Shown here: in pieces, positions 16,640 to 45,020 of the stretch
Layout: every line of letters begins with the position of its first letter
Position numbering within the stretch: position 1 is the stretch's first letter
From: Belliella baltica DSM 15883
GTDB lineage: Bacteria > Bacteroidota > Bacteroidia > Cytophagales > Cyclobacteriaceae
Length of the DNA: 64,000 bases
Direction of reading: 5' to 3'
Assembly: GCF_000265405.1 (NCBI RefSeq)
Contig: NC_018010.1
Coordinates: 1,054,001-1,118,000 of the forward strand
Position numbers and translations under genes: made by a program
Notes under the pieces: generated by a model
Database searches by the model: none
What the model was told of the DNA's origin: nothing
Seen by the model: only the letters and a program-made list of their open reading frames with translations

Positions 16640-16651
16640 ATAAGCGCTTAT
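16640..16651. promoter_or_regulatory. Perfect palindrome overlapping the integrase start codon
   Basis: ATAAGCGCTTAT is a perfect 12-bp palindrome that includes the first two bases of the integrase ATG at 16650. It might be an autoregulatory operator or a small RNA hairpin limiting translation. Both are inference. Confidence 0.4.
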
Positions 16652-18017
16652 GGAGCAAAGACCCATATCAATCGAAATCATTGGGAGAAAAATAATTCTA
16701 AGGATTCCCAAGAATGAGGATGACATAAAATTTATTCGCAGTATCCGATATTCTCGCTGGAATAAGGAGGGTTTTTTTTGGGAGATTCCCCATTATCCCG
16801 GAAACGTTGAGCTGTTGAAAGGATATCTTGGAGATCGCTTGCATCAAATCACCGAACGACCATTGATTGAAATTCCGCAGAAAGATGAGGTAGTTTTATT
16901 AGATAATAACCAAGTATTGATGGTCAAGACAGCTAAGGCGCGACTTCGCTTGTATTTTGGATTTCATGCTGAGCTGATGAAAGTGCTTAAGAGCTTTCCG
17001 TATTATAAGTGGGACAGTAAGAGCAAGTCTTGGAGTATTCCTTATTCTGAGCAGTTTTTGGAGGAGATAAAAAAAAGGATTGTAGAATTTGGGATGGAAT
17101 TGATTTATCAGGAAGAAAAGAATGAAGATAGAGTTAAGCGAAAAAGCCAAGAGAAGATACCGAACTATAGAAAGTGTCCCGAAGAATACATCTACAAGTT
17201 GGAAGAAAGGAGGTATAGTCCAAGTACAGTTAGGGCATATGTTCCCCTTTTTGAAGAATTTATCAATCATTTTCCATCAACATTAATTGAAGAAATGGGT
17301 GAAAAAGAGGTGATGGAGTTTTCAAGATATTTAGTGACGGAGAGAAAAGTATCTAGTTCCCATCAGAATCAGGCTATTAATGCTATTAAGTTCTATTTCG
17401 AGAAGGTAAAAGGAGGAGAGCGAAAATACTATCATGTGGATAGGCCAGTAAGAGAAAAGATATTGCCTGAGGTCTTGAGTGAAGAGGAGGTTTCGGCAAT
17501 TCTAAAAGCAACAATTAATTTGAAGCACAGAGCAATATTAATGACAATTTATTCGGCGGGATTGAGAATTAGCGAATTAATTAATCTTAAAATTAAAGAT
17601 ATAGACTCTAATCGAATGCAGATAAGGATAGAGCAAGGAAAAGGTAAAAAAGATAGATACACTTTATTATCTTCGAAGGCGTTAGAAATTTTGCGCATAT
17701 ATATCAAACAGGAACGGCCCCATTATTATTTATTTGAGGGTCAGGGAAGTAAAATTGAGAAACCTCTTAAATACTCTGCAAGGAGTATTCAAAGTATTCT
17801 CAAACAATCATTGCAAAGAACAGAAATTAAGAAAAAGATCACAGTTCATACATTACGCCATTCTTTTGCTACCCATCTTTTGGAAAATGGTACAGACTTA
17901 AGGTATATTCAAAGTTTGTTAGGTCATGAGAGCCCAAAAACTACTCAAATCTATACTCATATAACTACCAAAGGGTTTGATCAAATTAAAAGTCCTTTAG
18001 ATGGATTGGATATTTAG
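16650..18017 (+). CDS. Tyrosine recombinase with two N-terminal HARP-like repeats
   Basis: A 455-residue site-specific recombinase. The C-terminal catalytic domain carries Arg306 (SAGLRISE), His400-xx-Arg403 (HTLRHSF), His426 (LLGHES) and Tyr435 (IYTH), so it should be active. A SAM-like core-binding domain lies at about 170-265. The N-terminal 160 residues hold two related segments, each ending in a Trp-rich signature (SRWNKEGFFWEIP at about 33-45, YKWDSKSKSWSIP at about 118-130). They resemble the HARP module of annealing helicases (by-eye similarity only). I see no extra segment between Arg306 and His400 like the one that marks IntI integrases; the C-terminal SPLD is shared with IntI but also with the IS91-associated recombinase here. 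It reads towards the array. Confidence 0.85.
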   Translation: MEQRPISIEIIGRKIILRIPKNEDDIKFIRSIRYSRWNKEGFFWEIPHYPGNVELLKGYLGDRLHQITERPLIEIPQKDEVVLLDNNQVLMVKTAKARLRLYFGFHAELMKVLKSFPYYKWDSKSKSWSIPYSEQFLEEIKKRIVEFGMELIYQEEKNEDRVKRKSQEKIPNYRKCPEEYIYKLEERRYSPSTVRAYVPLFEEFINHFPSTLIEEMGEKEVMEFSRYLVTERKVSSSHQNQAINAIKFYFEKVKGGERKYYHVDRPVREKILPEVLSEEEVSAILKATINLKHRAILMTIYSAGLRISELINLKIKDIDSNRMQIRIEQGKGKKDRYTLLSSKALEILRIYIKQERPHYYLFEGQGSKIEKPLKYSARSIQSILKQSLQRTEIKKKITVHTLRHSFATHLLENGTDLRYIQSLLGHESPKTTQIYTHITTKGFDQIKSPLDGLDI

Positions 18018-18051
18018 AAATTAGTTTTATGTTTAGATAATTTAAAAATAT

Positions 18052-18116
18052 ACGCAACAGTTGCGCAATACATTCCATATGGAACAAATAGCGCAATGGT
18101 TGCGTGAAGAAAACCG
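18052..18116 (+). other. Candidate attI-like primary recombination site
   Basis: Between the integrase stop and the first cassette, ACGCAACAGTTGCGC (18052-18066) and GCGCAATGGTTGCGT (18091-18105) form inverted arms (13 of 15 match). They surround the 12-bp palindrome TTCCATATGGAA (18073-18084). The insertion-type sequence CC-GTTAGCAG follows, with the expected crossover after G18116. The arrangement suits a recombinase binding site at the array head. It could instead be a diverged attC. Confidence 0.6.
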
Positions 18117-18170
18117 TTAGCAGTCACCCTAAAACTGACACTAAATAATGAAAAGTAACTTTTAATAAGT

Positions 18171-19382
18171 ATGAACGAATTAAAACAAGGCAGACGAATA
18201 CTCACGAAAATTTCTTTAGCGATAAATATTGTTTTCATCTGTGGGACAATTTTTATTGCGTATAAATTTTATCCAAAAATCAAATCAAATTTCTTTCCAA
18301 ACAAACAAGAAATCACAGCTATTCAAGAAGCAAAACTTAAAGACACGGACACTATTCCGACAGTTTTTTATGATGCTTCTGAATTTGAAATCATCGGACA
18401 ACTGCCAAACACAAAAACGTACATAAGACTTCCAGATAATGCTGAGAAAATTGTTCGAGAACCTGTTTGGAAACTATCAAAAAACTCAGCAGGAATTTCT
18501 GTTCGTTTTTCTTCCAACTCTTCTAAAATTAAAATTCGTTGGACTTTAAACAGTAATTCAAATGCTACCAATCAGACACCTATTGCTTCCAAAGGTTTTG
18601 ACTTGTATGCTTATGTGGAAAGCAAATGGCAATTTGTAGGTGTTGCACAGCCAAAAGGGACAATTCAAAATGAAGCGACTGTAATTGTCGGAATGGAGGC
18701 GAAAAATCGTGAATACTTATTAAACTTACCTTTGTATAACGGAATTAGTTCGCTTGAAATCGGTATTGATAAAGGAACTTCTATTGACAAACCAACTCAA
18801 AAAATCATTGACACTTCAAGCCCTATCGTTTTTTATGGAACAAGTATAACACAAGGGGCATCGGCTTCACGTCCGGGATTAACATACGCAGCACTATTAG
18901 AAAGACATTTTAACAAAGAAGTAATAAACTTGGGGTTTAGTGGTAACGGCAGATTTGAAAAGGAAATTGGCAAATACTTTATGACCTCTAAACCTTCTGT
19001 AATTGTTTTGGACTGCACACCAAATTCACCTGCCGACACTATCAGAAAAAATCTTCCCGAACTTCTTGACTATATTCTTTCCTTAAATGATACAATTCCA
19101 ATAATACTTGTAGAAAGTATTATGAGAGATTTTGCGTTCTTCAAAAAAGACGACAAAACAGTTTTTGGAACAATTTCATTCATAAACGAACAAAACAAAG
19201 CGTTGAAAGATGTCTATGAAAAAAAATCAAAAACGAATAAAAATATAATCTACGTTAGTAATCATAATCTTGTTGGACAAGACCACGAAGCGACAATAGA
19301 CGGAACACATTTTAACGACTTAGGACATTACAGAGCTTACGAACGTTTACGACAAGAAATTGAAAAATATCTATTAAAATAA
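18171..19382 (+). CDS. SGNH/GDSL hydrolase family protein (cassette C1)
   Basis: A 403-residue membrane-anchored or secreted hydrolase. One membrane segment near residues 15-37 (NIVFICGTIFIAYKF region) precedes a beta-rich domain of about 150 residues. The SGNH catalytic domain has block I VFYGTSITQGAS at about 220-231, the block II Gly in NLGFSGNG, and block V DGTHFNDLGH with the catalytic Asp and His at about 377-386. Some relatives act as carbohydrate esterases; the substrate is not known. It is the only gene of the first cassette, starts 54 bases after the crossover point, and probably relies on an upstream promoter or one in the short leader. Confidence 0.85.
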   Translation: MNELKQGRRILTKISLAINIVFICGTIFIAYKFYPKIKSNFFPNKQEITAIQEAKLKDTDTIPTVFYDASEFEIIGQLPNTKTYIRLPDNAEKIVREPVWKLSKNSAGISVRFSSNSSKIKIRWTLNSNSNATNQTPIASKGFDLYAYVESKWQFVGVAQPKGTIQNEATVIVGMEAKNREYLLNLPLYNGISSLEIGIDKGTSIDKPTQKIIDTSSPIVFYGTSITQGASASRPGLTYAALLERHFNKEVINLGFSGNGRFEKEIGKYFMTSKPSVIVLDCTPNSPADTIRKNLPELLDYILSLNDTIPIILVESIMRDFAFFKKDDKTVFGTISFINEQNKALKDVYEKKSKTNKNIIYVSNHNLVGQDHEATIDGTHFNDLGHYRAYERLRQEIEKYLLK

Positions 19383-19395
19383 ACATAAGGGCGAA

Positions 19396-19529
19396 CTGCT
19401 AACACGGGTTTTGCGTCAGGCGGGGTGATGTGCAAACTTGGAGCTTTGTGCTTCGTATCAAGTGTAGTGCAGGTTGACAGTTTTGTGCTCCGAAACCCGC
19501 CCGAACGCAAAGCCCGAAAACGTTATCGC
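19396..19529 (+). other. attC site 1 (end of cassette C1)
   Basis: R'' box CTGCTAAC (19396-19403), a long imperfect inverted repeat (GGGTTTTGCG arm from 19406, pairing with CGCAAAGCCC ending at 19515), and R' box GTTATCGC (19522-19529). The R'' box is the exact complement of GTTAGCAG at the start of C1 (18116-18123). Total 134 bp. Confidence 0.85.
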
Positions 19530-19610: not shown

Positions 19611-20942
19611 GTGACATCAGAATCGCAAAATATTGAATTCAAAGTAAATTGGAGAGACGAATATCTTAAATGGATCTGTGGTTTTGCTAATGCCTATGGC
19701 GGTACTCTTTTCATTGGAAAAGATGATGCAGGAAATGTGGTTGACTTGAAAGATGCTAAAAAACTATTAGAAGAAATCCCTAACAAGGTTAGAGACACTT
19801 TGGGGATTTTGGTCGATGTTAATCTGCACCAAAATGACCAAGGAAGTTTTATTGAAATTCTTGTTGAGCAATACCCTTACCCTGTCAATTATAAGGGACA
19901 ATATCATTATAGAAGTGGAAGCACCAAACAAGAATTAAAAGGTCCTTCACTTGACAAGTTTCTCCTTCAGAAAAAAGGGAAAAGATGGGATGGGGTACCT
20001 GTTCCGAATGTTTCAACAAATGACCTTAAGCAAGAAACATTTGATTTTTTTCGTAAACGAGCTTTCAGAAGCCAAAGAATTGATGAAGAAAGTTTAGCTG
20101 ATAGTAATGAACACCTTATTGAGAACCTTCAACTCAAAGAAGGTAAATTTCTTAAGCGGGCATCTATTCTGCTGTTTCACCCTAATCCTGAAAAATATAT
20201 AACAGGAGCTTACATAAAAATAGGTTTTTTCGAAAGTGATAGTGATTTGAGATATCAAGACGAAATCCACGGAAATCTTTTTGAACAAATTGAAAAAACA
20301 ACAGAATTATTATTCACAAAGTACATCAAGGCATTTATTAGCTATGAAGGTTTGAATCGAGTGGAGACCTATGAATATCCGAGAGAAGCAATTAGAGAAG
20401 CATTATTGAATGCTCTTGCCCATAAAGACTATTCGGGTGGCGTTCCCATTCAAATAAGTGTTTATAAGGATAAGTTAATGATTTGGAATGAAGGGCATCT
20501 TCCTGATGATTGGACCATTCAAACACTTCTAGATAAGCACTCATCAAAGCCATTCAACCCAGATATTGCAAATGCACTTTTTCGCAGCGGATACATTGAA
20601 TCTTGGGGTCGGGGTATTTCGAAAATGACAGAGCAGTGCTTTAATTTTGGACTCCCTGCGCCCTTGTTCTTTTTTAAAAGTTCGGGTTTTTGGGTAGAAT
20701 TTAGAAAAGACATATATACATACGACCAACTTAAAGAGCTTGGGCTAAATGAACGACAGATTAAAGCTGTACTTTTCGTAAAGGAGAATGGTAAAATTAA
20801 TAACAGTGACTACCAGACTTTAAATAATGTATCAAAAGCAACTGCCACAAGAGACCTTACTGAACTTGTTGAAAAATTCAAGGTATTGGTCAGAAGTGGA
20901 GAAGTTGGAGCAGGAACAACCTATGTTTTGATTGGCTCATAA
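19611..20942 (+). CDS. AlbA_2/Schlafen-like ATP-binding protein (cassette C2)
   Basis: A 443-residue protein. The N-terminal AlbA_2 (Schlafen core-like) domain spans about residues 5-120, with the hallmark ESQNIEFK start and FANAYGGTLFIGKDDAGNV at about 24-42. A GHKL-type ATP-binding domain (HATPase_c_4) follows, with REALLNALAHKDYS at about 262-275 and the SWGRGISKM block at about 330-338. The C-terminus looks like a winged helix (about 375-443). Such proteins are variously annotated as regulators or candidate anti-phage factors; the role here is unknown. The start is GTG, chosen because the conserved ESQNIEFK begins three codons later. It is the sole gene of C2. Confidence 0.82.
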   Translation: MTSESQNIEFKVNWRDEYLKWICGFANAYGGTLFIGKDDAGNVVDLKDAKKLLEEIPNKVRDTLGILVDVNLHQNDQGSFIEILVEQYPYPVNYKGQYHYRSGSTKQELKGPSLDKFLLQKKGKRWDGVPVPNVSTNDLKQETFDFFRKRAFRSQRIDEESLADSNEHLIENLQLKEGKFLKRASILLFHPNPEKYITGAYIKIGFFESDSDLRYQDEIHGNLFEQIEKTTELLFTKYIKAFISYEGLNRVETYEYPREAIREALLNALAHKDYSGGVPIQISVYKDKLMIWNEGHLPDDWTIQTLLDKHSSKPFNPDIANALFRSGYIESWGRGISKMTEQCFNFGLPAPLFFFKSSGFWVEFRKDIYTYDQLKELGLNERQIKAVLFVKENGKINNSDYQTLNNVSKATATRDLTELVEKFKVLVRSGEVGAGTTYVLIGS

Positions 20943-21007: not shown

Positions 21008-21141
21008 GCGATAACAGCGTGTATGAAAAATAGCGGGAAAAGTGCTAAATCAAAGGTCAGTGCTTTTAATAAATGTCAATGCCAAACTGAAAGTGAAGTG
21101 CTTTTTTATCCGCTACTTCTCGTACACGCAAAACGTTAGGC
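21008..21141 (+). other. attC site 2 (end of cassette C2)
   Basis: R'' box GCGATAAC (21008-21015) exactly complements GTTATCGC at the start of C2 (19522). The arms AGCGTGTATG...TAGCGG and CCGCTA...CGTACACGC pair closely, and the R' box is GTTAGGC (21135-21141). Total 134 bp, with spacing like attC site 1. Confidence 0.88.
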
Positions 21142-21166
21142 AACATGCTAAAAGAGCCAACGCACA

Positions 21167-21266: not shown

Positions 21267-23660
21267 ATGAATAAAAAAGACCTTTCAGAAAGGGACATAT
21301 GTACAAAATTCATAACTCCAGCCATTGAGAAAGCAGGCTGGGACAGGCTGACTCAGCTCTTAGAGGAAGTGACTTTTACTGATGGTAAAATCTATGTTCG
21401 TGGGAAATTGACTGCTAGAGGAGCTAGAAAAAGAGCAGACTATATTCTTTACTATAAGCCCAATATTCCAATAGCTATAATTGAAGCTAAAGACAATAAA
21501 CATACTGTTAGAGCTGGAATTCAACAGGCTTTAGAATATGCAAAAATTCTTGATATCCCTTTTGTGTTCAGTAGCAATGGAGATGGATTTGTTTTCCACG
21601 ACAAGACCAAGCAAAGTGAAGCCATTGAAACCGAATTGGATTTAGACAGCTTTCCATCACCTGAAACCTTGTGGAACAAATTAAACCAATTCAGAGGTAT
21701 AGTAACAGAAGAAGCGGAAAAGGTTGTTGGTCAAGATTATTATTTTGATGGAAGCGGAAGAAATCCAAGATACTACCAACAAATTGCTGTAAATCGTGCT
21801 GTAGAGGCAATAGCTAAAGGTCAAGACAGGATTTTGCTCGTAATGGCGACAGGAACAGGCAAAACTTACACAGCTTTTCAAATCATACACCGACTTTGGA
21901 AAAGTGGTGCGAAAAAGCGAATCCTTTTTCTTGCAGACAGAAACGCTTTGATTGACCAAACTCGAAGAGGAGATTTTAAACATTTCAAAGATAAAATGAC
22001 GGTTGTAAAAAACCGTATGATTGACAAAAGCTATGAAGTCTATTTAGCTTTATACCAAGGTTTATCTGGTTCGGATGAAGAAGCCAATGCATACAAACAG
22101 TTTTCACCTGAATTCTTTGACTTGATTGTAATTGATGAGTGCCACAGAGGAAGTGCCAAAGAAGATAGTTCTTGGAGAGAAATACTCAACTATTTCAAAA
22201 AAGCTACTCACATTGGTTTAACGGCTACTCCGAAAGAAACAAACGAAGTTTCTAACAGTGAATATTTCGGAGACCCAATTTACACTTACTCATTAAAACA
22301 AGGAATTGATGATGGCTTTCTTGCCCCTTACCGTGTAGTTCGAGTGAATTTGAATATAGATGCAGAAGGCTGGCGACCTGAGGTAGGTAAAAAAGACAAA
22401 GATGGAAATGAGGTTGAAGACAGGGTTTACAACCGTAAAGACTTTGATAGAAACTTAGTAATTGAAGAAAGAACACAAGCGGTTGCAAGAAAGCTTACTG
22501 AGTTTTTGAAAGGATATGACCGCTTTGCAAAAACCATAGTATTCTGTTCAGACATTGACCATGCAGAACGAATGCGAACAGCTTTATCAAACCTGAATGC
22601 TGATTTGGTTTCAAAGAACCACAAATACATCATGCAGATTACAGGCGACAATGATGAAGGTAAACGAGAACTGGACAACTTCATTAATCCAGAAGAAATT
22701 TATCCCGTTATTGCGACAACATCCGAATTAATGACCACTGGTGTGGATGCCCAAACCTGCAAAGTCATTGTGTTGGATGCAGAAATAAAATCAATGACAA
22801 AATTCAAACAGATTGTGGGTCGTGGCACTAGAATAAATGAAGAGTTCGGGAAAATGTACTTTACCATTCTTGATTTCAGAAACGTCACAGACTTATTTGC
22901 TGATAAAGATTTTGATGGAGACCCCATTCGAGTTAAACCAGTTTCGGAAGATACAGACTTGGGTGGTATTGTTGACGAAGAAGAAAATATTGAAACACCC
23001 ATTATTGATGAGGAATCTGGAGAGGAAATAGAAATTAAACCAACAATTAGATATCCTGAAACTGAATTTCAACCCGGAATGGTGAGTGAACCAAGGCAAA
23101 AAGTGTATGTAAATGGTGTTGATGTTTCAGTTTTGATAAGTCGGGAAATGTATTTTGACAACAATGGAAAACCGATTACAACAAGCTTAAAAGACCATAC
23201 AAAAGACCTGATAAAAGGCCAATACGCTTCAATGGACGACTTCTTGACAAGATGGAATAGCAGTGATAAGAAAGAGGTCATAATCAAGGAACTTGAAGAA
23301 CAAGGTGTAATGGTTGAAGCTTTGCGTGATGCAGTAAACTGGGAAGTTGACTTATTTGATTTAATCTGTCACGTTGCATTTGACCAACCACCACTAACAA
23401 GAATGGAACGTGCAAACAACGTGAAAAAAAGAAATTACTTTACCAAGTACGGTGACCAAGCCAAAAAAGTCTTGGAAGCACTTTTGGACAAATATGCCGA
23501 TGAGGGCGTAACGAACATTGAAAGCATGGATGTACTAAAAGTCAAACCACTCAATGAATTTGGTTCACCCCTTGAAATCATCAAAGAATTTGGTAGTAAA
23601 GCCAAATACTTGGAAGCAATCAAAGAATTAGAACAAGAACTTTATAAAACTGGAGCTTAA
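21267..23660 (+). CDS. hsdR: Type I restriction enzyme, HsdR subunit
   Basis: A 797-residue motor/nuclease subunit of a type I restriction-modification system of the EcoEI/EcoR124-like size class. An N-terminal nuclease domain lies at about residues 20-140, with ARGARKRADYILYY and the PIAIIEAKDNKH block (PD-(D/E)xK-type D and ExK). The superfamily 2 helicase has Walker A MATGTGKT at about 192-199, DECH at about 289-292, LTATP at about 319-323 and GRGTRINEE near 525. A C-terminal EcoEI_R_C-like domain follows. It is the first gene of the operon in C3, and its stop shares one base with the hsdM start. It cleaves unmodified DNA after translocation when complexed with HsdM and HsdS. Confidence 0.92.
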   Translation: MNKKDLSERDICTKFITPAIEKAGWDRLTQLLEEVTFTDGKIYVRGKLTARGARKRADYILYYKPNIPIAIIEAKDNKHTVRAGIQQALEYAKILDIPFVFSSNGDGFVFHDKTKQSEAIETELDLDSFPSPETLWNKLNQFRGIVTEEAEKVVGQDYYFDGSGRNPRYYQQIAVNRAVEAIAKGQDRILLVMATGTGKTYTAFQIIHRLWKSGAKKRILFLADRNALIDQTRRGDFKHFKDKMTVVKNRMIDKSYEVYLALYQGLSGSDEEANAYKQFSPEFFDLIVIDECHRGSAKEDSSWREILNYFKKATHIGLTATPKETNEVSNSEYFGDPIYTYSLKQGIDDGFLAPYRVVRVNLNIDAEGWRPEVGKKDKDGNEVEDRVYNRKDFDRNLVIEERTQAVARKLTEFLKGYDRFAKTIVFCSDIDHAERMRTALSNLNADLVSKNHKYIMQITGDNDEGKRELDNFINPEEIYPVIATTSELMTTGVDAQTCKVIVLDAEIKSMTKFKQIVGRGTRINEEFGKMYFTILDFRNVTDLFADKDFDGDPIRVKPVSEDTDLGGIVDEEENIETPIIDEESGEEIEIKPTIRYPETEFQPGMVSEPRQKVYVNGVDVSVLISREMYFDNNGKPITTSLKDHTKDLIKGQYASMDDFLTRWNSSDKKEVIIKELEEQGVMVEALRDAVNWEVDLFDLICHVAFDQPPLTRMERANNVKKRNYFTKYGDQAKKVLEALLDKYADEGVTNIESMDVLKVKPLNEFGSPLEIIKEFGSKAKYLEAIKELEQELYKTGA

Positions 23661-25096
23661 TGGCGAACATAAAAGGAATAGTAGATGGTATTCGTAAAAT
23701 CATGTGGCAAGACACAGGATTGAATGGTGATGCACAAAGAATTGAGCAGCTGGGATGGATGCTGTTTTTAAAAATCTTCTCTGATAAGGACAAAGAACTT
23801 GAAACTCTAAAAGATGATTACGTTAGCCCCATACCTGCTGAGCTTCATTGGGATGCCTGGGCTGGAGATGATGAGGGGATGACTGGGGATAAACTTCAAG
23901 AATTCGTTGACCGTGAACTTTTTCCAAAACTCAGAAATCTGAAAGTTGGTGTAACGAATGATTTGCCCAACAAACGAGCTTTAATTGTTCGTGAAGTGTT
24001 TCAGGGCAATAACAACTACATGAAAAGCGGCATCAATATCCGCAAGGTGTTGAACAAGCTCAACGAAATAGATTTTAATATTGCCAAAGACCGCCATGCA
24101 TTTGGTGAGATTTATGAAACCATTCTGAAAGAACTCCAAAGTGCTGGTAAAAGTGGCGAATTCTACACGCCTAGAGCGATTACCGAGTTTATCACAGAAA
24201 TGATTAACCCGCAATTGGGAGAAAAGATTTTAGACCCGAGTTGTGGTACAGGTGGTTATTTAACAGCTGCTATAGAGCATTTGAAAAAACAAGCCAACAG
24301 CGTTGAGGAATTAGAAAGTATCTCAAACAACATCATTGGTTGGGAATACAAACCACTTCCTTATTTGTTGGCAACCACTAATTTGATTCTCCATGATGTT
24401 GAAGTGCCCAACATCACATTTAGAGATTCTTTAGAACAGCCCCTGAGTGCTTACACAGAAAAGAACAGGGTGAATGTGATATTAGCCAATCCACCATTTG
24501 GCGGCATAGTAGCCAATAACAACGAAAAAAACTTTCCTCAAAACTATCGTACCAAGGAAAGTGCTGACCTGTTTTTGGTTTTAATGGTTCATCTTTTGAA
24601 AAAAGTTGGTCGGGCTGGTATAGTTTTACCTGATGGTTCTTTAACCGGTGGCGGAATTAAAGAAAGAGTTCGTCAAAAACTTTTGGAAGAATGCAATCTG
24701 CATACAATAATTAGATTACCTAACTCAGTATTTCAACCTTATGCAACCGTAGCCACCAACTTGCTTTTTTTCACCAAGGGTGAAAAAACCAAAGAAGTTT
24801 GGTATTACGAGCACAGATTACCTGAAGATCAAAAAGCATACAGCAAAACGAAGCCTTTGCAATTAGATGAACTTGACCCTATCAAAACTTGGTGGAATGA
24901 TAGAAAGGAAAGTGAAATCAGTTGGAAGGTGGATATTAAAACCATTATTGAACGCAATTATGATTTAGATATCAAAAACCCAACTAAGGTTGAAGAAAGC
25001 GTTGAACATAGCAGCGAAGATTTGATAAAGATGCTTGAAGCTTCTTTTCAAAAAAGCAATGAATTGTTTAATCAATTAAAAGCTGCGGTAAAATGA
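23660..25096 (+). CDS. hsdM: Type I DNA methyltransferase, HsdM subunit
   Basis: A 478-residue N6-adenine methyltransferase subunit. It has an N-terminal HsdM_N bundle (about residues 5-130), the GEFYTPRAITEF block at about 167-178, the SAM-binding motif LDPSCGTGGYL at about 190-200, and the catalytic NPPFGG at about 277-282. Length is typical. It overlaps hsdR by one base and hsdS by four (ATGA), so the three subunits are translationally coupled. With HsdS it methylates the bipartite target and protects the host. Confidence 0.93.
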   Translation: MANIKGIVDGIRKIMWQDTGLNGDAQRIEQLGWMLFLKIFSDKDKELETLKDDYVSPIPAELHWDAWAGDDEGMTGDKLQEFVDRELFPKLRNLKVGVTNDLPNKRALIVREVFQGNNNYMKSGINIRKVLNKLNEIDFNIAKDRHAFGEIYETILKELQSAGKSGEFYTPRAITEFITEMINPQLGEKILDPSCGTGGYLTAAIEHLKKQANSVEELESISNNIIGWEYKPLPYLLATTNLILHDVEVPNITFRDSLEQPLSAYTEKNRVNVILANPPFGGIVANNNEKNFPQNYRTKESADLFLVLMVHLLKKVGRAGIVLPDGSLTGGGIKERVRQKLLEECNLHTIIRLPNSVFQPYATVATNLLFFTKGEKTKEVWYYEHRLPEDQKAYSKTKPLQLDELDPIKTWWNDRKESEISWKVDIKTIIERNYDLDIKNPTKVEESVEHSSEDLIKMLEASFQKSNELFNQLKAAVK

Positions 25097-26649
25097 GTTT
25101 AGTCAAAATTAAAGACTTATTTCACTTTGAAAAGGGAACGCTTCAAAGCACCAAGGCAACTCCTGGTGAGTATGACTTTATAACAGCAGCAGCTGATTGG
25201 AAAACACATAATGAATATACCCATGATTGTGAAGCATTGATTTTTGCGGCAGCTGCTTCGGGTTCATTGGGCAGAACACATTATGTAAATGGCAAATTCA
25301 TTTCGAGTGATCTTTGTTTCATTCTTACTCCAAAAGACGAAGAAAAATATCCAATAGACATAAAGTTTTATCACCTGATTTTTAATGCATTTAAAGACGA
25401 TATAGTACGCAATACCAAATCAGGCACATCAAAAGAAGCTATCGGATTAACTGTTTTTGGCAATTACAAACTACCTTATTTTGAAATTGAAAAACAGCAA
25501 AATACTAAAGAAGCATTCCTGAAAGCACAGGAACTGTCTCAATCATTAGATAAAGAGCTTTCCAATCAATTAGAATTAATCAAAAATCTTCGACAAGCTT
25601 TTTTAAAAGATGCTATGCAAGGTAAGCTGGTGGAACAAGACCCCAATGATGAACCAGCATCGAGTCTTCTTGAAAGAATCAATGCCGAAAAAGAACGTTT
25701 GATTAAGGAAAAGAAAATTAAAAAAGAGAAAGAGCCACCTGCTATCTTAGAAGAAGAAATCCCTTTTGATATACCAGAGAAGTGGGCTTGGTGTAGATTA
25801 GGTTCAATTTCAGAATTTATTTCAGGAAATAATTTTAATAGTGGAGACTTTTTTAAGGGAGCGGGTGTAAAGTGCATTAAAATTACAAATGCAGGGGTAA
25901 ATGAGATTATTGAAACAGACGATGTTTTGCCACAAACTTTTGTAAGTAAATATTCTCAATATCTTGTTTATGAAGGTGACTTAGTTTTAGCCTTGACTAG
26001 ACCATACATTTCAGATGGTCTAAAAATAAGTAAATGTCCTCAATCATATGACAAATCCTTACTTAATCAAAGGGTTGCAGTTATTAGACCATTTTTAAAA
26101 TCGCAAACTGATTACATCTTCACTTTTTTGAAGTCTGATTTTGTTTTGAAGCGTTATAAATCGATGTTTGAAGGTAAGGGACAACAGCCAAATCTAAAAA
26201 AAGAGCATGTAACCAATTTATTAATCCCAATTGCTCCTGAGGCAGAGCTAGAAAGGATTGTCGCCAGATTGGAAGAGCTAATGCATATTTGTGACAAGAT
26301 GGAGGCAAGCATCAGAGAATTTAAAATGCAGAGTGAATCACTTTTGCAACAAACTTTACGAGAAGCTCTAGGTATAAATCCTTCTAAAAAACTAATCGAA
26401 AATAATAATCCAATACAATCAAAGAATGTCCATTCCAAATTTGATTCAAACACACTCCTAATGGAAATACAAGAACTTTTAAAAATTCACGGCAAGCTCC
26501 AAGCATTGGAACTTTGGCAAATGTCCAAATTCTATGGCAAGTCCGAAGAAGAAAGAAATATTGATGGCTTTTATGCAGAATTAAAAAAACTAATCGAGAA
26601 AGATAAATTGATTAAAGAAACCGAAAAAGGCTATTTGGAATTAGTATGA
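25093..26649 (+). CDS. hsdS: Type I restriction enzyme specificity subunit HsdS
   Basis: A 518-residue DNA-recognition subunit. Two target-recognition regions lie at about residues 1-135 and 225-385, each followed by a coiled-coil spacer (EKQQNTKEAFLKAQELSQSLDKEL at about 138-165, and AELERIVARLEELMHICDKME near 390-410). The motif IPEKWAWCRLGSISEFISGNN-like start of the second TRD is at about 230 (IPEKWAWCRLG). A tail of about 90 residues beyond the second spacer (KIHGKLQALELWQMSKFY) is longer than in the commonest HsdS. The target sequence cannot be predicted. It overlaps both neighbours by four bases. Confidence 0.9.
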   Translation: MSLVKIKDLFHFEKGTLQSTKATPGEYDFITAAADWKTHNEYTHDCEALIFAAAASGSLGRTHYVNGKFISSDLCFILTPKDEEKYPIDIKFYHLIFNAFKDDIVRNTKSGTSKEAIGLTVFGNYKLPYFEIEKQQNTKEAFLKAQELSQSLDKELSNQLELIKNLRQAFLKDAMQGKLVEQDPNDEPASSLLERINAEKERLIKEKKIKKEKEPPAILEEEIPFDIPEKWAWCRLGSISEFISGNNFNSGDFFKGAGVKCIKITNAGVNEIIETDDVLPQTFVSKYSQYLVYEGDLVLALTRPYISDGLKISKCPQSYDKSLLNQRVAVIRPFLKSQTDYIFTFLKSDFVLKRYKSMFEGKGQQPNLKKEHVTNLLIPIAPEAELERIVARLEELMHICDKMEASIREFKMQSESLLQQTLREALGINPSKKLIENNNPIQSKNVHSKFDSNTLLMEIQELLKIHGKLQALELWQMSKFYGKSEEERNIDGFYAELKKLIEKDKLIKETEKGYLELV

Positions 26650-30564: not shown

Positions 30565-30585
30565 TTCATTAGAAAAAAATCGACC

Positions 30586-33931: not shown

Positions 33932-34140
33932 CTTGTGTAAAGTTAGCAGACACACTTAAATGAACAGTCTCTTAAGACAATATAAAATAATTGATAATTA
34001 TCAAATCTATCAATCAGATTTCAATCAATTAGTATTTGTTATCCATGACGAAGAAAATGATTTATATTATCGACTTGAAAGAACTAATACAGAAATTGAA
34101 AAGACCGATTTGAATCTACGAAAATGGATTGAAATATTGT

Positions 34141-36508: not shown

Positions 36509-36605
36509 GCGATAACATTAAGCCCACTAGAGAAAAGCCCTTTGAAAAAAAGCCCTGATTGATGTAAAATCTATCAGGGCTTTTTGCTAGTGGCTGTTGA
36601 CTGAC
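36509..36605 (+). other. attC-like site 6 (end of cassette C6), atypical
   Basis: R'' box GCGATAAC (36509-36516) exactly complements GTTATCGC at the start of C6 (34656). The stem differs from the others: AGCCCACTAG pairs with CTAGTGGCT, and inside it lies a terminator-like hairpin (AAAGCCCTGAT with ATCAGGGCTTT). The presumed R' box GTTGACTG (36596-36603) fits GTTRRRY imperfectly. The right half may have been remodelled when the IS91-type element arrived. Confidence 0.6.
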
Positions 36606-36801
36606 AACTGGAGGGTGAAGTGTTTGCTAGGTGTATTAGTACTCTTTTTATGGGTTTAATTATTTTTCATTAGTTACGATTTCTACTATTATTTGACCAA
36701 TCCTTGTGGAAAAGGCATAAAATCCCCTACCCAAAATTGGGGTATTCTGCTTTAGAGATGTCTTGGACCCAACCATTGTTTTCTTAGATCCTGAATACAT
36801 G

Positions 36802-37956
36802 TCAGGAAGGGGCTGGATTTGGATTGAAAGATTTTTGTTTTCTGGCTGATCTATCCCTTGTATCAAAGATTGTTTCCATTCTTCCGTGATCGCAGCAAGG
36901 GCATTTTAAAATATCCCTGCCGTATTTTTCGAGCATTCTGATCTGGAATGGAATTGTGACTTTGGGTTTGGTTGGTTGCATATCGAGAGAAGACCGTATC
37001 ATAGCCAACCGTTCAGTTTTGCCCTGTATTCTCAAGTATCCGAAGTGGCGGATCTTGACAAACCTTTTTGGTAGGATATGCTGCTCAAACCTTCTAAGGA
37101 ATTCCTGATGAGTAAGCCACATCTGTTTTGTTTTGGAACCGTCTGCATAGTCTTTATAGCTGAACTTGATATGTGTTGCGTTGACCTCAAGGATTCGGTG
37201 TTTGGTGATGGCAATCTTGTGGGTATAGCGTCCAAGGTACTCGACGACTCTATCGGGTGAACCGAAAGGAGCTTTGGCGTATACGTTCCATTTTTTGAAC
37301 CTTACAGCTTTAATTACGCTGTTTTTACTGCCAATCCAGCTAATTGAGGGATCTTTTTCCATCCCTTCCATGAATATGGCTTTGAACATACTTGCCAGAC
37401 TTTTTTGAGGAAAAAGGAATCGGTTGTTTTTGCGTTTGGCATCTACCCAACGCTTTCCGTCGAAGCCACCTGCACTGACGATACAATGTACATGTGGATG
37501 GAAAGAAAGATCCTGTCCCCAAGTGTGGAGAACCATTGTAATACCTGGTTCAGCTCCCAGGAATTCAGGCATTCGACCGTGTTTGAGTAATGTTTGGGAA
37601 GCTGCCTGAAACAGCAAGTTAAATAGCCTGTTTCTGTTGCCCATGATCACAACATTGAGTTCATGGGGCAAAGTGAATACTACATGATAGTATGCTGTAG
37701 GTAGTAGTTCGTCCATCCTTCCCTGAATCCAAGCGTCCCTTTTCATACTTCCACAGTTGGGACAGTGTCTGTTACCGCAGCAATGGTAGCGATGGGCGAT
37801 GTTGCCACATTGTTGATCATTGCATCTGCTAATGTGATAGCCCTTAGCAGCGGTATGACATGCTACAAGATCAGCAAAAACAGCTTTGCTATAAGTATTG
37901 AAGCTGTGGATGGATTGATGTCTGAATAGGGATTGGAAAGAAGAGTCAGTTTCCAT
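36802..37956 (-). CDS. IS91-family transposase
   Basis: A 384-residue HUH-type rolling-circle transposase. An N-terminal zinc-binding region is rich in Cys/His (residues about 33-65, CHTAAKGYHISRCNDQQCG and CCGNRHCPNCG), then the HUH motif SFHPHVHCIVSAGG at about 172-185. The tyrosine motif lies in EYLGRYTHKIAITKHR at about 244-259. Length and motif order match IS91/IS801/IS1294-type proteins. The start overlaps the recombinase gene by 11 bases, as in the Bacteroidota group where IS91 transposase and tyrosine recombinase travel together. Confidence 0.9.
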   Translation of the reverse strand: METDSSFQSLFRHQSIHSFNTYSKAVFADLVACHTAAKGYHISRCNDQQCGNIAHRYHCCGNRHCPNCGSMKRDAWIQGRMDELLPTAYYHVVFTLPHELNVVIMGNRNRLFNLLFQAASQTLLKHGRMPEFLGAEPGITMVLHTWGQDLSFHPHVHCIVSAGGFDGKRWVDAKRKNNRFLFPQKSLASMFKAIFMEGMEKDPSISWIGSKNSVIKAVRFKKWNVYAKAPFGSPDRVVEYLGRYTHKIAITKHRILEVNATHIKFSYKDYADGSKTKQMWLTHQEFLRRFEQHILPKRFVKIRHFGYLRIQGKTERLAMIRSSLDMQPTKPKVTIPFQIRMLEKYGRDILKCPCCDHGRMETIFDTRDRSARKQKSFNPNPAPS

Positions 37957-38782
37957 CAGCTAGCAAATCAAGTGGAGATACTAGTTTTTCCCTACGTTGT
38001 TTGGTAAGGTGAAGATAGATCATAGTAGTCTCTATCTTTGAGTGTCCAAGAAGCTGTTTGATGGTATGAATATCTGTTCCCGCATCAAGCAGATGTGTGG
38101 CAAAGGAATGCCTGATAGAATGTGCGGAAAAACCATACTGTTCAAAGCCCGCCTGTTTCATGGCCATGCGGATGGCGTGCTGTATGGAGCGGTCGTTCAT
38201 AGCTTTTCCCGGGATCTGTCCTTCAAAGAGAAAAACTTTCGGCTTGTGTACTCTGTAGTAAGCTTCAAGCAAAGGGAGAACAGCAGCTGGAAGGATAGTA
38301 AATCTGTCCCTGCTACCCTTTCCTGCCACAACTTTGAGCTGCATTTCGGCTCTTGAGATATGTTTCATTTCCAAGAATCGAAGTTCGCTCAACCTGATAC
38401 CTGTTCCATAAAACAAAGCAATGATGGCTTTATGCTTGATATTGGTTGTGGATTGGATTACATGGCTGATCTGATCTTGGGTTAGAATTTCCGGAAGTCT
38501 GAAGTCTTTCCGGGGATAAAGTGCGTGGGGGACTACATAAGGTGAAGGTAAAATGTGTTTAAAAAAGAAGCTACAGCTTTGAGCCGTCATCCTGCATTTG
38601 TCCCTACCGACAGCATGCTCTTTTTTGATGTAATTGATGTAAGAGGCAATGTGATCTTGGGTGAGCTGCTCAGGATTAAGGTGATTGAAATAGGCGAAAA
38701 TATAGCGCATCTCGGCCATATAGTTGCGGATGGTCATATGGGAATATGCTTTGGCTTCTAGGAAAGAAGATAGTTTTAGCAA
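37946..38782 (-). CDS. Tyrosine recombinase of the IS91-type element
   Basis: A 278-residue XerD-like recombinase. A core-binding SAM-like domain (about residues 1-95) precedes the catalytic domain with GTGIRLSELRFLEM (Arg), HSIRHSFATHLLD (His-x-x-Arg), LLGHSKIETTMIYLHLT (His and Tyr) and a SPLDLL tail. It overlaps the transposase gene. The first good codon in this frame is TTG at 38782, but the frame stays open upstream to an A8 run (38826-38833). An ATG at 38843 would join it if the run had seven A residues, so the full protein may need slippage or carry a frameshift. Confidence 0.85.
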   Translation of the reverse strand: MLKLSSFLEAKAYSHMTIRNYMAEMRYIFAYFNHLNPEQLTQDHIASYINYIKKEHAVGRDKCRMTAQSCSFFFKHILPSPYVVPHALYPRKDFRLPEILTQDQISHVIQSTTNIKHKAIIALFYGTGIRLSELRFLEMKHISRAEMQLKVVAGKGSRDRFTILPAAVLPLLEAYYRVHKPKVFLFEGQIPGKAMNDRSIQHAIRMAMKQAGFEQYGFSAHSIRHSFATHLLDAGTDIHTIKQLLGHSKIETTMIYLHLTKQRREKLVSPLDLLADGN

Positions 38783-38910
38783 ATACTCCTTAGCGGAATC
38801 ATTGAGGGCAACAGTGCCCAGCGTGTTTTTTTTGAGTTTTCATGATCTAAGATTTTGATATAAATAAAAATAAGCAGAATTTAGGTAAATCGCTCACCCG
38901 TAGGGTGTCA

Positions 38911-39044
38911 GTTCAACAGGCGTTTGGCAAAAAAGCAGGTTCAGTGGTTAAATGAAGCTTTGTTCTTCGTATCAAGTTCAGTGCTGGCAGACAGTCTAGT
39001 GCTTCGAAATCCGCTTCTTCGCCAAGCGCCAAACCGTTAGCTGC
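38911..39044 (+). other. attC site 7 (end of cassette C7)
   Basis: R'' box GTTCAAC (38911-38917, a perfect RYYYAAC), the arms GGCGTTTGGCAAAAAAGC and CGCTTCTTCGCCAAGCGCC pair, and the R' box is GTTAGCTGC (39036-39044). The loop resembles that of attC site 1. The R'' box abuts the IS91-type end and pairs only partly with the presumed start box of C7. Confidence 0.85.
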
Positions 39045-41315: not shown

Positions 41316-41447
41316 GCAGGTAACAAGGTATAAAAGCAATAGCGGTTTGGGTTTAAACTCAAACCGATTTGCATTTAAATAAGTATATTATAATTCGAAA
41401 GGTAAGTTTAATAATCCTGCTACTGCTCTTATACAGTACGTTGGCAT
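41316..41447 (+). other. attC site 8 (end of cassette C8)
   Basis: R'' box GCAGGTAAC (41316-41324) complements GTTAGCTGC at the start of C8 (39036) at 8 of 9 positions. The arms GTATAAAAGCAATAGC and TGCTACTGCTCTTATAC pair, and the R' box is GTTGGCAT (41440-41447). 132 bp. Confidence 0.85.
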
Positions 41448-41476: not shown

Positions 41477-43213
41477 ATGGACTTTTACAGGAAAACAACT
41501 TTAGGGCTTTTTGATAGCTCGCAAAAATCATTTGAAATACCAGTATATCAAAGAGCCTACTCTTGGGAGAAAGACCAGTGGCAAACTTTTCTTAACGACT
41601 TGTTGGAACAAATTGAAGGAGAGAATAACTACTTCTATGGAAATATCCTTTTAGAAACTGTCAAGAAAGATGTTAAGTATGAAATTATTGACGGACAACA
41701 GAGATTAACTACTTTGACCATTTTCATACGCTCAATTCTGAACGTATTGAAAAAGCGAGAAAAAGAGCTAGAAGATTTCGACTTTCAAACTAAAGAAAAC
41801 ATTTTCCTTAAAAACGGTGGGAATATAAAATTACGCCCAGTCGAATATGATAGGGCTTGCTTTGATTCACTAATTATTGACAATCAGAAGAAATTTGAAA
41901 CAAATACACCATCACAAGTAAGAATAAAGGAGGCTAAAACATTTTTTGTCACAGAATTGGAAAAGTTGAAGACAGATATTTTGCTACGAGTTCTTACAAA
42001 AATTGAGACGACTGACCTAACGATTATCGAACTAGAGGGCAAAAAGGATTCTGCGTTAATGTTTGAATTGGAGAATAATAGAGGCAAAGATTTGACAAAT
42101 ATGGAAAAAATCAAATCTTACTTTATGTATCAAATGTACGTTTACAGCGACCCTGAACAAACAGAATCAAATATTGAAAATGTGTCAAATATTTTCAAGC
42201 TGATTTATTTAATAATCAATGATTTCAAAAGACTCAACGAAGATAGTGTGCTAATCTATCACAACAACGCTTATATCAAAGGCTATAATTACAGGACACT
42301 AGAAGATGTTAAAGAAGTTTTCAAGAAATCAGAAGACAAGATAGATTGGATTAAAAAATACATTTCTGAACTTCATACTTCCTTCTCAAATATGAAGAAG
42401 TTTGAAAGCTCAGATAATTTTTATGCAAAAAAACTTTCTAAAATAAATGCACCTGCCTTTATCTACCCTTTTGTAATTAGAGGATATAAATACTTTGGAG
42501 ATGATAGCAAGAAACTGAATACACTTTTTAATATACTTGAAGTTTTAACCTTTCGTGCAAGATTGATAAATAGCAGAGCCAATATTCAAGAGCGTTTAAA
42601 TTCAATTCTTCTCAATTTTAAAGGAGATTTAATAAACCTTAAACAAGAGATTAAAAGCAAATTGAATGAATCTTGGTATTGGAGCGATACAAACACAAAA
42701 AACTATCTGAATGGTGGAATGTATGGAAATAAGGTTTTAAACTATTTGCTTTGGGAGTATGAAAATTCAATTCAGAATAAAGGGTATAGTATCAAAAACT
42801 TTAGCTTAGAGAATGAACAAATAGAGCATATTTCACCACAAACACCAACAGACGGAGAGCCAATAGCGACAGGCTATGACCTGAATGAAGACCGCGAATA
42901 TTCTGAAGATTTTGTGTCTGAGCACTTAAACAGCTTGGGAAATCTAATGTTAATCTCAGGCTCACATAATGCTTCAATTGGAAATAAGGCATTTAAAGAT
43001 AAACTTGACTCATACAAAGCAAATCCTCTTTTAAATCAACAAGCAGAGATTAAAGATTTTGCAAATTCTGAAAATGAAGCAGTTTTTTGGAAAACAGAAT
43101 CAATCGAAAAACGACATAAGAAAATAGTGGATTTTGCAATCCAAAAATGGAGTTTTGATAAAGTAGAAACAACATATCTAGAAAAAGAATTAATAGAGGA
43201 CGAAAAAAAATAA
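41477..43213 (+). CDS. DUF262 and DUF1524 domain protein, GmrSD-like (cassette C9)
   Basis: A 578-residue protein. The N-terminal DUF262 (ParB/sulfiredoxin-like nucleotidase) has FEIPVYQRAYSWEKDQW at about residues 19-35, YGNILL near 55 and IIDGQQRLTTLTIF at about 70-83. The C-terminal DUF1524 HNH-type region has QIEHISPQ at about 450-457 and LNSLGNLMLISGSHNASIGNKAF at about 479-501. This is the fused layout of GmrSD-like type IV restriction enzymes, which cleave modified phage DNA. Anti-phage activity is inferred from the family. Sole gene of C9. Confidence 0.87.
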   Translation: MDFYRKTTLGLFDSSQKSFEIPVYQRAYSWEKDQWQTFLNDLLEQIEGENNYFYGNILLETVKKDVKYEIIDGQQRLTTLTIFIRSILNVLKKREKELEDFDFQTKENIFLKNGGNIKLRPVEYDRACFDSLIIDNQKKFETNTPSQVRIKEAKTFFVTELEKLKTDILLRVLTKIETTDLTIIELEGKKDSALMFELENNRGKDLTNMEKIKSYFMYQMYVYSDPEQTESNIENVSNIFKLIYLIINDFKRLNEDSVLIYHNNAYIKGYNYRTLEDVKEVFKKSEDKIDWIKKYISELHTSFSNMKKFESSDNFYAKKLSKINAPAFIYPFVIRGYKYFGDDSKKLNTLFNILEVLTFRARLINSRANIQERLNSILLNFKGDLINLKQEIKSKLNESWYWSDTNTKNYLNGGMYGNKVLNYLLWEYENSIQNKGYSIKNFSLENEQIEHISPQTPTDGEPIATGYDLNEDREYSEDFVSEHLNSLGNLMLISGSHNASIGNKAFKDKLDSYKANPLLNQQAEIKDFANSENEAVFWKTESIEKRHKKIVDFAIQKWSFDKVETTYLEKELIEDEKK

Positions 43214-43217: not shown

Positions 43218-43351
43218 ATGCCAACAATGGTTATACGTAATGCGGGTTAAAGTGCTGATATGAAAGTAATTACATTAAACAAGCCTTTCGGTAAGCGGAC
43301 AGTGAAGTGCCTTGAAATCCCGCACTACGCATAGCCGAGACCGTTAGTGGC
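43218..43351 (+). other. attC site 9 (end of cassette C9)
   Basis: R'' box ATGCCAAC (43218-43225) exactly complements GTTGGCAT at the start of C9 (41440). The arms GGTTATACGTAATGCGGG and CCCGCACTACGCATAGCC pair, and the R' box is GTTAGTGGC (43343-43351). 134 bp. Confidence 0.9.
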
Positions 43352-44149: not shown

Positions 44150-44229
44150 ATATTAAGAACCCCAAACCTAGCACAATCAGTTTTTTAATTTTGAAAATAG
44201 TAACTTTTAAGTTACATTTACGTTATCGA

Positions 44230-44593
44230 TAAAATCAGGGAAGTTATAGCCTATCAAGACCACTTTGAGAACTTTCTGAAAAAGCAAACAGTCAAAGTTC
44301 AAAACAAGATTTAAAAAGTCATTGAGGCTATTGAAACTTTTGAAAGAGTTCCGGAGACTTACCTAAAACCCATAAAAACAAAGAAAGGCCTATATGAAGC
44401 CAGGGTTCAGTTGGCAAGTAACATTTGGAGGGTGTTTTGTTTTTTTGATGAAGGCAAATTGGTGATTTTGCTCAATGGCTTTCAAAAAAAAACCCAAAAA
44501 ACACCAACCAAGGAAATTGAAAAGGCTGCCAGACTGATGGATGAATATTATGCTGAAAAGGAAGTTCAAAAAGGTAAAAAGAAAAAGAAATGA
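44230..44593 (+). pseudogene. RelE/HigB-like toxin, broken by a stop codon (cassette C11)
   Basis: A continuous frame reads IDKIREVIAYQDHFENFLKK, then has an in-frame TAA at 44312-44314, then continues KVIEAIETFERVPETYLKPI through LYEARVQLASNIWRVFCFF to the end at 44593. The two halves together look like a RelE-superfamily toxin of about 120 residues with an intact C-terminal core. No ATG is found in frame before the first half. The second half alone could start at a TTG (44411) but would lack the N-terminal strand. The toxin is therefore probably inactive. Its stop overlaps the antitoxin start by four bases. Confidence 0.7.
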
Positions 44594-44880
44594 ATACTAA
44601 GAGCTGGAAAGATATCAAAGATGATGTGTATGGAGTCAAAGGAACCGAACGCAGGGATGAATTAGAAAGGGATTTTGAGTCTTTCAAAATTGGTTTGCTA
44701 TTAAAAAAGGCAAGAGAGGATAAGAATCTAACACAGGAGCAATTAGCAGAATTAGTTGATAAAAAGAGAACTTATATTTCAAGAGTTGAAAACAATGGAA
44801 GTAATCTGACACTGAAAACCCTTTATGAAATAGTTGAAAAGGGATTAGGTGGGAAGGTAAAAATCTCCATTGAACTCTGA
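44590..44880 (+). CDS. XRE-family antitoxin, HigA-like (cassette C11)
   Basis: A 96-residue helix-turn-helix protein. The HTH_3 region is LLLKKAREDKNLTQEQLAEL to TYISRVENNGSNLTLKTLYEI (about residues 35-83). It is toxin-first in order, as in HigBA, with a four-base overlap (ATGA) with the broken toxin. It is intact and may still repress its own promoter or neutralise related toxins, although its own toxin appears dead. Confidence 0.85.
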   Translation: MNTKSWKDIKDDVYGVKGTERRDELERDFESFKIGLLLKKAREDKNLTQEQLAELVDKKRTYISRVENNGSNLTLKTLYEIVEKGLGGKVKISIEL

Positions 44881-44892
44881 AAAAGGAATAAC

Positions 44893-45020
44893 GCACTCTA
44901 ACATCACCTTGGATACAGCGGGCGGTTCCGAGTAAATAGAAAGTTTAGTATCTTTAAAAAGTTAGGAGTAGGCTGGAAGAGAAGTGCTCCGAATGCCTAA
45001 CTGCTGTAATATAGACCAGC
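44893..45020 (+). other. attC site 11, degenerate (end of the array)
   Basis: R'' box GCACTCTAAC (44893-44902) complements GTTATAGTGC at the start of C11 (44140) at 9 of 10 positions. Arm pairing is weak (ATACAGC with GCTGTAAT), and the R' position reads AGACC-AGCCC where other sites read AGACC-GTT, as if GTT were lost. It marks the distal end of the array. Confidence 0.55.

What the first reader, a model, noticed from the sequence alone, without database searches (positions are those of the whole stretch)
16650..45020. A 28-kb integron-like cassette array in a Bacteroidota chromosome
After a tyrosine recombinase gene come eleven tandem units; nine end in a long inverted-repeat attC-like site (R''/R' boxes, mostly 130-138 bp apart) and two in degenerate ones. 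The cargo is what integrons carry (toxin-antitoxin pairs, defence genes, enzymes with their own regulators, unknown genes). Integrons and attC clusters are best known from Proteobacteria, and I believe them to be uncommon in Bacteroidota. Box and stem structure is seen directly; the mobile behaviour is inferred.
Basis: partly seen in the sequence, partly recalled or inferred. Interest (0 to 1): 0.95.

Follow-up and report, generated by a model that had tools for sequence, protein, structure and literature searches.

The report
Overlooked integron family in Bacteroidota
A bacterial gene-swapping platform (an integron) with an unusual recombinase was found in a Bacteroidota chromosome; its recombination sites appear in most Bacteroidota genomes sampled and around known antibiotic-resistance genes, so a major route of gene exchange may have been overlooked.

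Summary
The array is real and is an integron in layout and logic, but not the textbook kind. Eight strong attC-like sites and one degenerate one (not eleven) end nine units. A covariance model built only from relatives finds the eight at E 9e-24 to 4e-11 and part of the ninth at 7e-5. In Belliella aquatica the same locus agrees up to the predicted attI crossover GTT, then carries other cassettes. Unit starts are complementary to unit ends, as integron recombination requires.

The recombinase lacks the IntI-specific stretch, scores below the IntI cut-off and has a long N-terminus that weakly resembles HARP. Relatives head such arrays in 14 of 20 neighbourhoods. The sites occur in 216 of 295 sampled genomes of the class, canonical IntI in 1.

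On plasmids the sites bound tet(X), erm(F), ere(D), aadS, estT, blaOXA-347, lnu(H) and lnu(I); tet(X) units share sequence up to GTT and have different neighbours. The 'xerD' beside tet(X3) is a 3' part of this recombinase family.

Recombination itself is inferred. I found no description of the system in the open-access papers searched.

The parts
16650..18017 (+). integrase (455 aa tyrosine recombinase), same direction as the array
   Evidence: Pfam Phage_integrase 275-439 and SAM_4 183-255; TIGR02249 216.9 bits, below the cut-off of 265; IntI-specific stretch absent
16650..17130 (+). N-terminal extension, two predicted repeats; weak HARP / XPB damage-recognition / MutS domain I resemblance
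18052..18118 (+). attI region: inverted repeat 18052-18105 and crossover GTT with G at 18116
   Evidence: imperfect palindrome; identity to Belliella aquatica ends at this GTT; first-unit start found 9/9 in 22 of 22 loci picked
18117..19522 (+). unit 1: GDSL-type esterase 18171-19382; attC 19396-19529
   Evidence: 107 bits
19523..21135 (+). unit 2: SLFN_AlbA_2 / HATPase_c_4 protein 19611-20942; attC 21008-21142
   Evidence: 102 bits
21136..30558 (+). unit 3: type I restriction-modification R, M, S, PtuA/PtuB-like pair and PLD-type protein, 21267-30291; attC 30430-30565
   Evidence: 94 bits
30559..32467 (+). unit 4: AraC-type regulator and short-chain dehydrogenase; attC 32343-32474
   Evidence: 73 bits
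32468..34656 (+). unit 5: Mutator-family transposase 32693-33955 (-) and small ORF 34141-34464 (-); attC 34527-34663
   Evidence: 77 bits
34657..39036 (+). unit 6: SWIM zinc-finger protein 34755-36440; its attC (stem and R' at 38910-39043) is interrupted by an IS91-family element
   Evidence: (114 bits, with the element's end read as R'')
36514..38918 (-). IS91-family insertion: Y2 transposase 36802-37956 and accessory tyrosine recombinase 37946-38782
   Evidence: 100% copy and further partial copies elsewhere in the genome
39037..41440 (+). unit 7: HxlR regulator (-), NmrA-like reductase, LigB/DOPA-extradiol-dioxygenase-like enzyme; attC 41317-41447
   Evidence: 57 bits
41441..43343 (+). unit 8: GmrSD-type endonuclease 41477-43213; attC 43218-43350
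   Evidence: 93 bits
43344..45033 (+). unit 9: DUF6364/PIN pair and HTH protein; degenerate attC 44896-45033
   Evidence: partial R1 match 44924-44994, 29 bits, E 7e-5; fold z +0.6

Best explanation
This is a sedentary chromosomal integron of a separate lineage that is widespread in Bacteroidota. Shown by comparison: (1) the recombinase heads a tandem array of units; (2) the first unit begins at a GTT about 100 nt after its stop codon (attI); (3) a unit's first 9 nt match the reverse complement of its last 9 nt, so a circular cassette would carry one folded attC; (4) homology between genomes and between plasmids breaks at that GTT. Inferred: the recombinase cuts at G^TT of the folded bottom strand of attC and of attI, and so inserts and excises circular cassettes, as IntI does. 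Strand choice would rest on G.T wobbles in the folded bottom strand (A.C mismatches in the top strand). The extended N-terminus would help bind the folded site in place of the missing IntI-specific domain.
For: Array. Cassette rule: of 59 units from window, relatives and plasmids, 38 match 9/9, 12 match 8/9, 4 match 7/9, 5 fewer; other pairings reach 9/9 in 1.2%. attI: first-unit start 9/9 in 22 of 22 loci picked, 16 of 22 within 92-144 nt of the integrase end. Homology ends at the attI GTT in B. aquatica, with flanks conserved. Linkage: of 20 integrase neighbourhoods, 14 have sites downstream in array orientation, 53 of 54 sites; 124 of 130 integrase-positive genomes have sites against 92 of 165 others, p = 5e-16. 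Plasmids: a tet(X2) unit of 1327 nt is identical in Bacteroides and Sphingobacterium, with a different left neighbour (45% in 60 nt; shuffled mean 43%) but the same right neighbour; a Riemerella tet(X) unit, 92.5% identical, differs from both on both sides (left 54% and 48%, right 45%); a tet(X3) unit follows attI in one plasmid and an attC in another, 97.3% from GTT on, 48% before. Bottom strand more stable than top in 63 of 80 sites, random 135-mers 31 of 80. 18 of 23 stem pairs show double changes. Catalytic R, K, HxxR, H, Y are kept in the alignment (roles recalled).
Against: No recombination was observed; no strains of one species were compared. Two of 20 neighbourhoods with room downstream (L173, L178) have no site, L168 has one upstream only, and three more without a site end within 0.9 kb of the integrase. 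A plasmid integrase (L092) has only two weak matches, E 0.002-0.005. 92 genomes have sites without a recombinase at the strict threshold. Two of this genome's own clusters (2.17 and 3.18 Mb) have no intact close integrase beside them, only a fragment, IS91-type recombinases and a 37% partial match at the second. Five of 59 units fall below 7/9; two of three units of L091, the one of L095, both blaOXA units and the estT-floR unit break the rule. The outer T.G pair is a conserved motif, not covariation: the unit-start base is A in 54 of 54. The IntI-specific domain that published surveys require is missing.
Confidence: 0.92

Rival explanations
1. A canonical integron whose IntI has simply diverged, so that nothing but sequence drift separates it from known ones.
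For: TIGR02249 is still the best NCBIfam match by E-value (216.9 bits); IntI4 is among the best fold matches; attI/attC logic is shared.
Against: A 31-aa IntI stretch and a second of 6 (10 in one) are absent in the three Bacteroidota integrases aligned; XerA aligns straight through. The 16 IntI form one clade (100/99) on a long branch. R1 finds no site in a class 1 integron stretch and only E 0.0017 beside a canonical Bacteroidota IntI.
Confidence: 0.2
2. A cluster of attC-like repeats moved passively by transposons (IS91/ISCR, IS256), the recombinase being an unrelated neighbour.
For: IS91-family copies sit at R'' boxes of attC in this genome; ISCR2 is reported to move the tet(X3) segment (PMC8635130, passages).
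Against: GTT boundaries of units, the start/end rule and the integrase linkage are not explained.
Confidence: 0.05
3. The inverted repeats are terminator-like or REP-like repeats between operons, not recombination sites.
For: They lie between genes and fold.
Against: Spacing of 118-124 nt in 80 of 88 detected sites, complementary unit ends, variation at the exact boundary.
Confidence: 0.02

Closest known systems
Canonical integrons (IntI / attI / attC)
   Same: Integrase followed by attI, tandem cassettes with terminal attC, GTT crossover, complementary unit ends, more stable bottom strand, many single-gene units
   Different: Integrase lacks the IntI-specific stretch and has a long N-terminus; here it is transcribed towards the array (L088 shows the divergent layout; canonical layout recalled); complementarity of unit ends runs to about 14 nt with a T.G pair at position 11, against a 7-nt R box (recalled); no conserved single-base bulge in the consensus stem
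XerA / XerC-like tyrosine recombinases
   Different: Xer acts on double-stranded dif sites (recalled); this one heads cassette arrays
IS91-family accessory tyrosine recombinases
   Same: 32-33% identical in this genome
   Different: Short (278 aa), linked to a Y2 transposase
xerD-tet(X3)-res-ISCR2 module of Acinetobacter plasmids (PMC7758954, PMC8635130; passages)
   Same: Its xerD/tnpF is 65% identical to residues 213-455 here and sits before tet(X3), which is followed by the first part of an attC of this type
   Different: Integrase and attC are both incomplete; the passages read do not call it an integron
Salinibacter ruber M1 integron (PMC9024848, passages)
   Same: Bacteroidetes host
   Different: The complete Bacteroidetes integron named there, found with IntI and attC models

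Membership tests
Integron (IntI-based definition) | Tyrosine recombinase with the IntI-specific additional domain | tested here: not met
   31-aa stretch, and a second of 6, of IntI1 and of a canonical Bacteroidota IntI absent; alignment to IntI4 splits, 26 aa against 64. Criterion from PMC9668308, passages
Integron (IntI-based definition) | NCBIfam integrase_gron over its cut-off | tested here: not met
   216.9 bits against 265
Integron (IntI-based definition) | attI next to the integrase, crossover at GTT | tested here: met
Integron (IntI-based definition) | attC: R''/R' boxes (AAC...GTT) around an imperfect stem, cassette ends complementary | tested here: met
Integron (IntI-based definition) | Extrahelical bases that set strand choice | tested here: inconclusive
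   No conserved single-base bulge in the 49-site consensus; G.T wobble at column 27/118 in 45 of 49; the one at 9/133 (49 of 49) follows partly from how sites were picked
Integron (IntI-based definition) | Units vary between genomes at the boundary | tested here: met
   B. aquatica at attI; plasmid units
Integron (IntI-based definition) | Integrase-dependent excision and insertion | not testable with these tools
   needs experiment
Integron (IntI-based definition) | Cassette promoter Pc | not tested
   none
HARP domain (PF07443) | Match over the curated cut-off | tested here: not met
   17.9-19.6 bits against 25
HARP / XPB damage-recognition / MutS domain I fold | Structural match | tested here: inconclusive

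The most novel reading that the evidence does not exclude
Integron-type cassette capture exists in a second form: a Xer-like recombinase without the IntI domain, whose N-terminal HARP/MutS-I-like repeats read the G.T wobbles of the folded bottom strand, so that strand and structure are recognised by mismatch sensing instead of extrahelical bases. It is the prevailing integron of Bacteroidota, and the platform that assembled tet(X), erm(F), ere(D), aadS, estT and blaOXA-347 as cassettes before other elements carried some of them into Acinetobacter and Salmonella.
Probability: 0.35. Interest if true: 0.98.

Novelty: new variant of a known kind. Interest (0 to 1): 0.95.

Why it matters
Surveys define integrons by the IntI-specific domain and by attC models (PMC9024848, PMC9668308, passages). 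A lineage without that domain would be missed, and the distribution fits: sites in 216 of 295 sampled genomes, canonical IntI in 1. If right, Bacteroidota are rich in integrons, not poor. Several clinically important resistance genes of that phylum (tet(X) among them) are gene cassettes, and the xerD beside tet(X3) has an identity. The integrase also gives a direct test of which parts of IntI are needed for single-strand site recognition.

Tried and rejected
Rejected: 'attC6' at 36509-36604 (IS91 end hairpin); detector hits on minus strands of L010 and L072 lie where the same IS end matches. Rfam at gathering level gave no match, which says nothing about attC. MAFFT on seven window sites misaligned two of them, so the model was built from relatives. 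A Pfam HARP search of 60 genomes found none at E 1e-3; too insensitive, as the family's own members score weakly. Fold searches of the whole protein were filled by the catalytic half; on the N-terminus alone Foldseek gave no match at E<=0.001, and the best VIA rows are eIF1-type folds. The tree does not resolve where this family joins IntI or IS91 recombinases. 'Class' and 'phylum' are the tool's own unnamed draws. I could not run IntegronFinder, compare strains of one species, or search preprints. Genome searches scored at most 11 or 16 sites per genome, so site counts per genome are lower bounds. R1 E-values are rough by the tool's own statement. One search kept only the best 5000 records. 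The 20 neighbourhoods were picked by me from the matches, and the 22 loci from loci with sites; for two of these 22 I set the integrase end by hand. Error mended on review: one search compared the right flank of the Bacteroides tet(X2) unit where my stretch ended about 10 nt later, with a longer stretch, shows that the right flank is shared with Sphingobacterium, so only the left boundary is a breakpoint in that pair. Odds left as they were, since the Riemerella pair and B. aquatica carry the point.
Full report
What was checked. The window lies in a 4.2-Mb single-contig genome; the closest named integrase is from Belliella aquatica, 93% identical. A recombinase at 16650-18017 is followed on the same strand by genes separated by long inverted repeats. 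Eight of these score 39-52.5 with a simple stem-and-motif detector; the next best in 64 kb on both strands is 25.5. A ninth, at 44896-45033, is degenerate. A covariance model (R1) built from 49 sites of other genomes (alignment A2) finds the eight at E 9e-24 to 4e-11 and part of the ninth at 7e-5, and nothing else in the window below 1e-3.

Cassette logic. In an integron the start of a unit and its end must together form the attC of the circular cassette (established knowledge, recalled). In the window, unit starts match the reverse complement of their own ends at 9,9,9,9,10,9,5,8,9,2 of 10 positions, against a mean of 4.7 for wrong pairings (p = 5e-6). The 5 is the IS91 false unit, and the 2 was registered one base off. 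In 59 units from the window, 80 related loci and six plasmid loci (sites scoring 34 or more, 117-126 nt spacing), 38 match 9/9, 12 match 8/9, 4 match 7/9 and 5 fewer; wrong pairings reach 9/9 in 1.2%. The detector does not use this rule. Agreement above wrong pairings runs on to about position 14; position 15 is hardly better than wrong pairings. In the 54 units with 7 or more matches, the base at position 11 of the start is A in 54, and a T.G pair results in the bottom strand in 51, if the register after position 9 may be shifted by one (0 in 39, 1 in 15). So this is a conserved motif, not covariation.

Sites. AAC-to-GTT spacing is 118-124 nt in 80 of 88 sites (mode 121). The consensus stem has 23 pairs, 18 with changes on both sides in some sequence. 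Pair 27/118 is a G.T wobble in 45 of 49; pair 9/133 is 49 of 49, but follows partly from the AACA requirement of my detector. The bottom strand folds better than the top in 63 of 80 sites (p = 1e-9), random 135-mers in 31 of 80. I saw no conserved single-base bulge.

Linkage and spread. In 80 related loci (215 relatives were found, 80 kept), 80 detector hits lie on the integrase strand, in 34 loci, and 10 on the other; many contigs end soon after the integrase. In 20 integrase neighbourhoods that I picked (39-53% identity), 54 R1 sites were found; 53 lie downstream in array orientation, in 14 loci. Six loci have none there: four contigs end within 0.9 kb of the integrase (L168, L175, L181, L183; L168 has one site upstream), and L173 and L178 have room but no site. 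In a sample of 295 genomes of the class, sites occur in 216, a close recombinase (E<=1e-60) in 130, and canonical IntI over its cut-off in 1. Of the 130, 124 have sites; of the other 165, 92 do. In a phylum sample, 113 of 198 have sites. R1 finds nothing below 1e-3 in 40 kb of E. coli K-12, in a 9-kb class 1 integron stretch, or in 14 kb beside the canonical Bacteroidota IntI. This genome itself has 24 matches at E<=0.01 in three clusters and two single places.

Mobility by comparison. In B. aquatica the flanks are conserved (window 6909-16526 in three pieces, 86-92%; 45572-47347, 82%). Identity through the integrase (94%) ends at 18118; both genomes read ...GAAGAAAACCGTT and then differ. No match of 150 nt or more lies in the array between (about 27 kb here, 7.5 kb there). 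In 22 loci picked, the first unit's start was found with 9/9 agreement in 22, in 16 within 92-144 nt of the integrase end.

Resistance genes. A tblastn of plasmids showed a 65% identical 3' part of this integrase on Acinetobacter plasmids, directly before tet(X3). The gene is followed by what reads as the first part of an attC of this type, broken off shortly before a resolvase gene. Neither detector nor R1 calls that remnant, but its 85 nt are identical to part of a site on an Empedobacter plasmid that R1 does call (L102, 69.6 bits). Two papers on this module (PMC7758954, PMC8635130; passages) describe xerD-tet(X3)-res-ISCR2 and ISCR2 transposition; attC does not occur in either main text. 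Two site queries found further plasmids, and R1 finds sites in each of the ten loci fetched from these (L093-L102), none in L089 and L090, and two weak ones in L092. In six of them (L094, L097, L098, L100, L101, L102), 16 of 20 units obey the rule 9/9: estT, erm(F) twice (once with an IS5), ere(D) twice, aadS, tet(X) three times, blaOXA-347, lnu(H), lnu(I), a RelE/HTH pair, an efflux operon, a MarR unit and an unknown gene. Exceptions: blaOXA twice (4/9), estT-floR (4/9), tet(X3) of L102 (6/9). In L091 the three units give 8, 2 and 3, and in L095 one unit gives 4. A tet(X2) unit of 1327 nt is identical between a Bacteroides and a Sphingobacterium plasmid; the 60 nt to its left differ (45%; shuffled mean 43%, maximum 55%), those to its right are the same. 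A Riemerella tet(X) unit, 92.5% identical, differs from both on the left (54% and 48%) and on the right (45%). The tet(X3) unit follows attI in Acinetobacter and an attC in Empedobacter, 97.3% identical over 1200 nt from GTT on and 48% in the 60 nt before. A Salmonella IncC plasmid of 175 kb has three sites, one of them just before estT-floR.

Mechanism. Shown by sequence: layout, attI, attC, unit logic, boundaries of exchange, linkage. Inferred: catalysis by this recombinase, folded bottom-strand substrate, circular intermediates. Speculative: that the N-terminal repeats read wobble pairs.

Known or not. No listing or passage that I saw described Bacteroidota integrons with such an integrase, or tet(X) as an attC cassette. 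I searched eight papers for terms and saw passages of seven (one search had no hit); none was read in full. PMC9024848 (passages) names a complete integron in Bacteroidetes, in Salinibacter ruber M1, and only integrases without cassettes there before. Most subscription journals and preprints were not searched, so priority is not established.

Noticed in passing
window 36514-38918; L162, L163, L164: IS91-family element with an accessory tyrosine recombinase. At three of the four left ends read, the flank is R''-like and joins AAC, so it may target attC sites (R''-likeness judged by eye).
   Followed up: partly
window 32639-32690: Perfect 26-bp inverted repeat with no spacer, right beside a Mutator-family transposase inside unit 5.
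   Followed up: no
own genome 2172892-2186459 and 3178946-3208739: Two further clusters of attC sites without an intact close integrase beside them; a 111-residue fragment 48% identical lies at 3173562.
   Followed up: partly
L088: Array on the opposite strand, upstream of the integrase: a divergent layout like canonical integrons (canonical layout recalled).
   Followed up: no
L091, 14552-15868: A group II intron maturase gene between attC sites of a Chryseobacterium plasmid array.
   Followed up: no
plasmid loci L094, L095, L097, L098, L101, L102: A second, longer class of sites of about 195-198 nt.
   Followed up: no
window 26646-29047: PtuA/PtuB-like pair placed directly after a type I restriction system in one large unit.
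   Followed up: no
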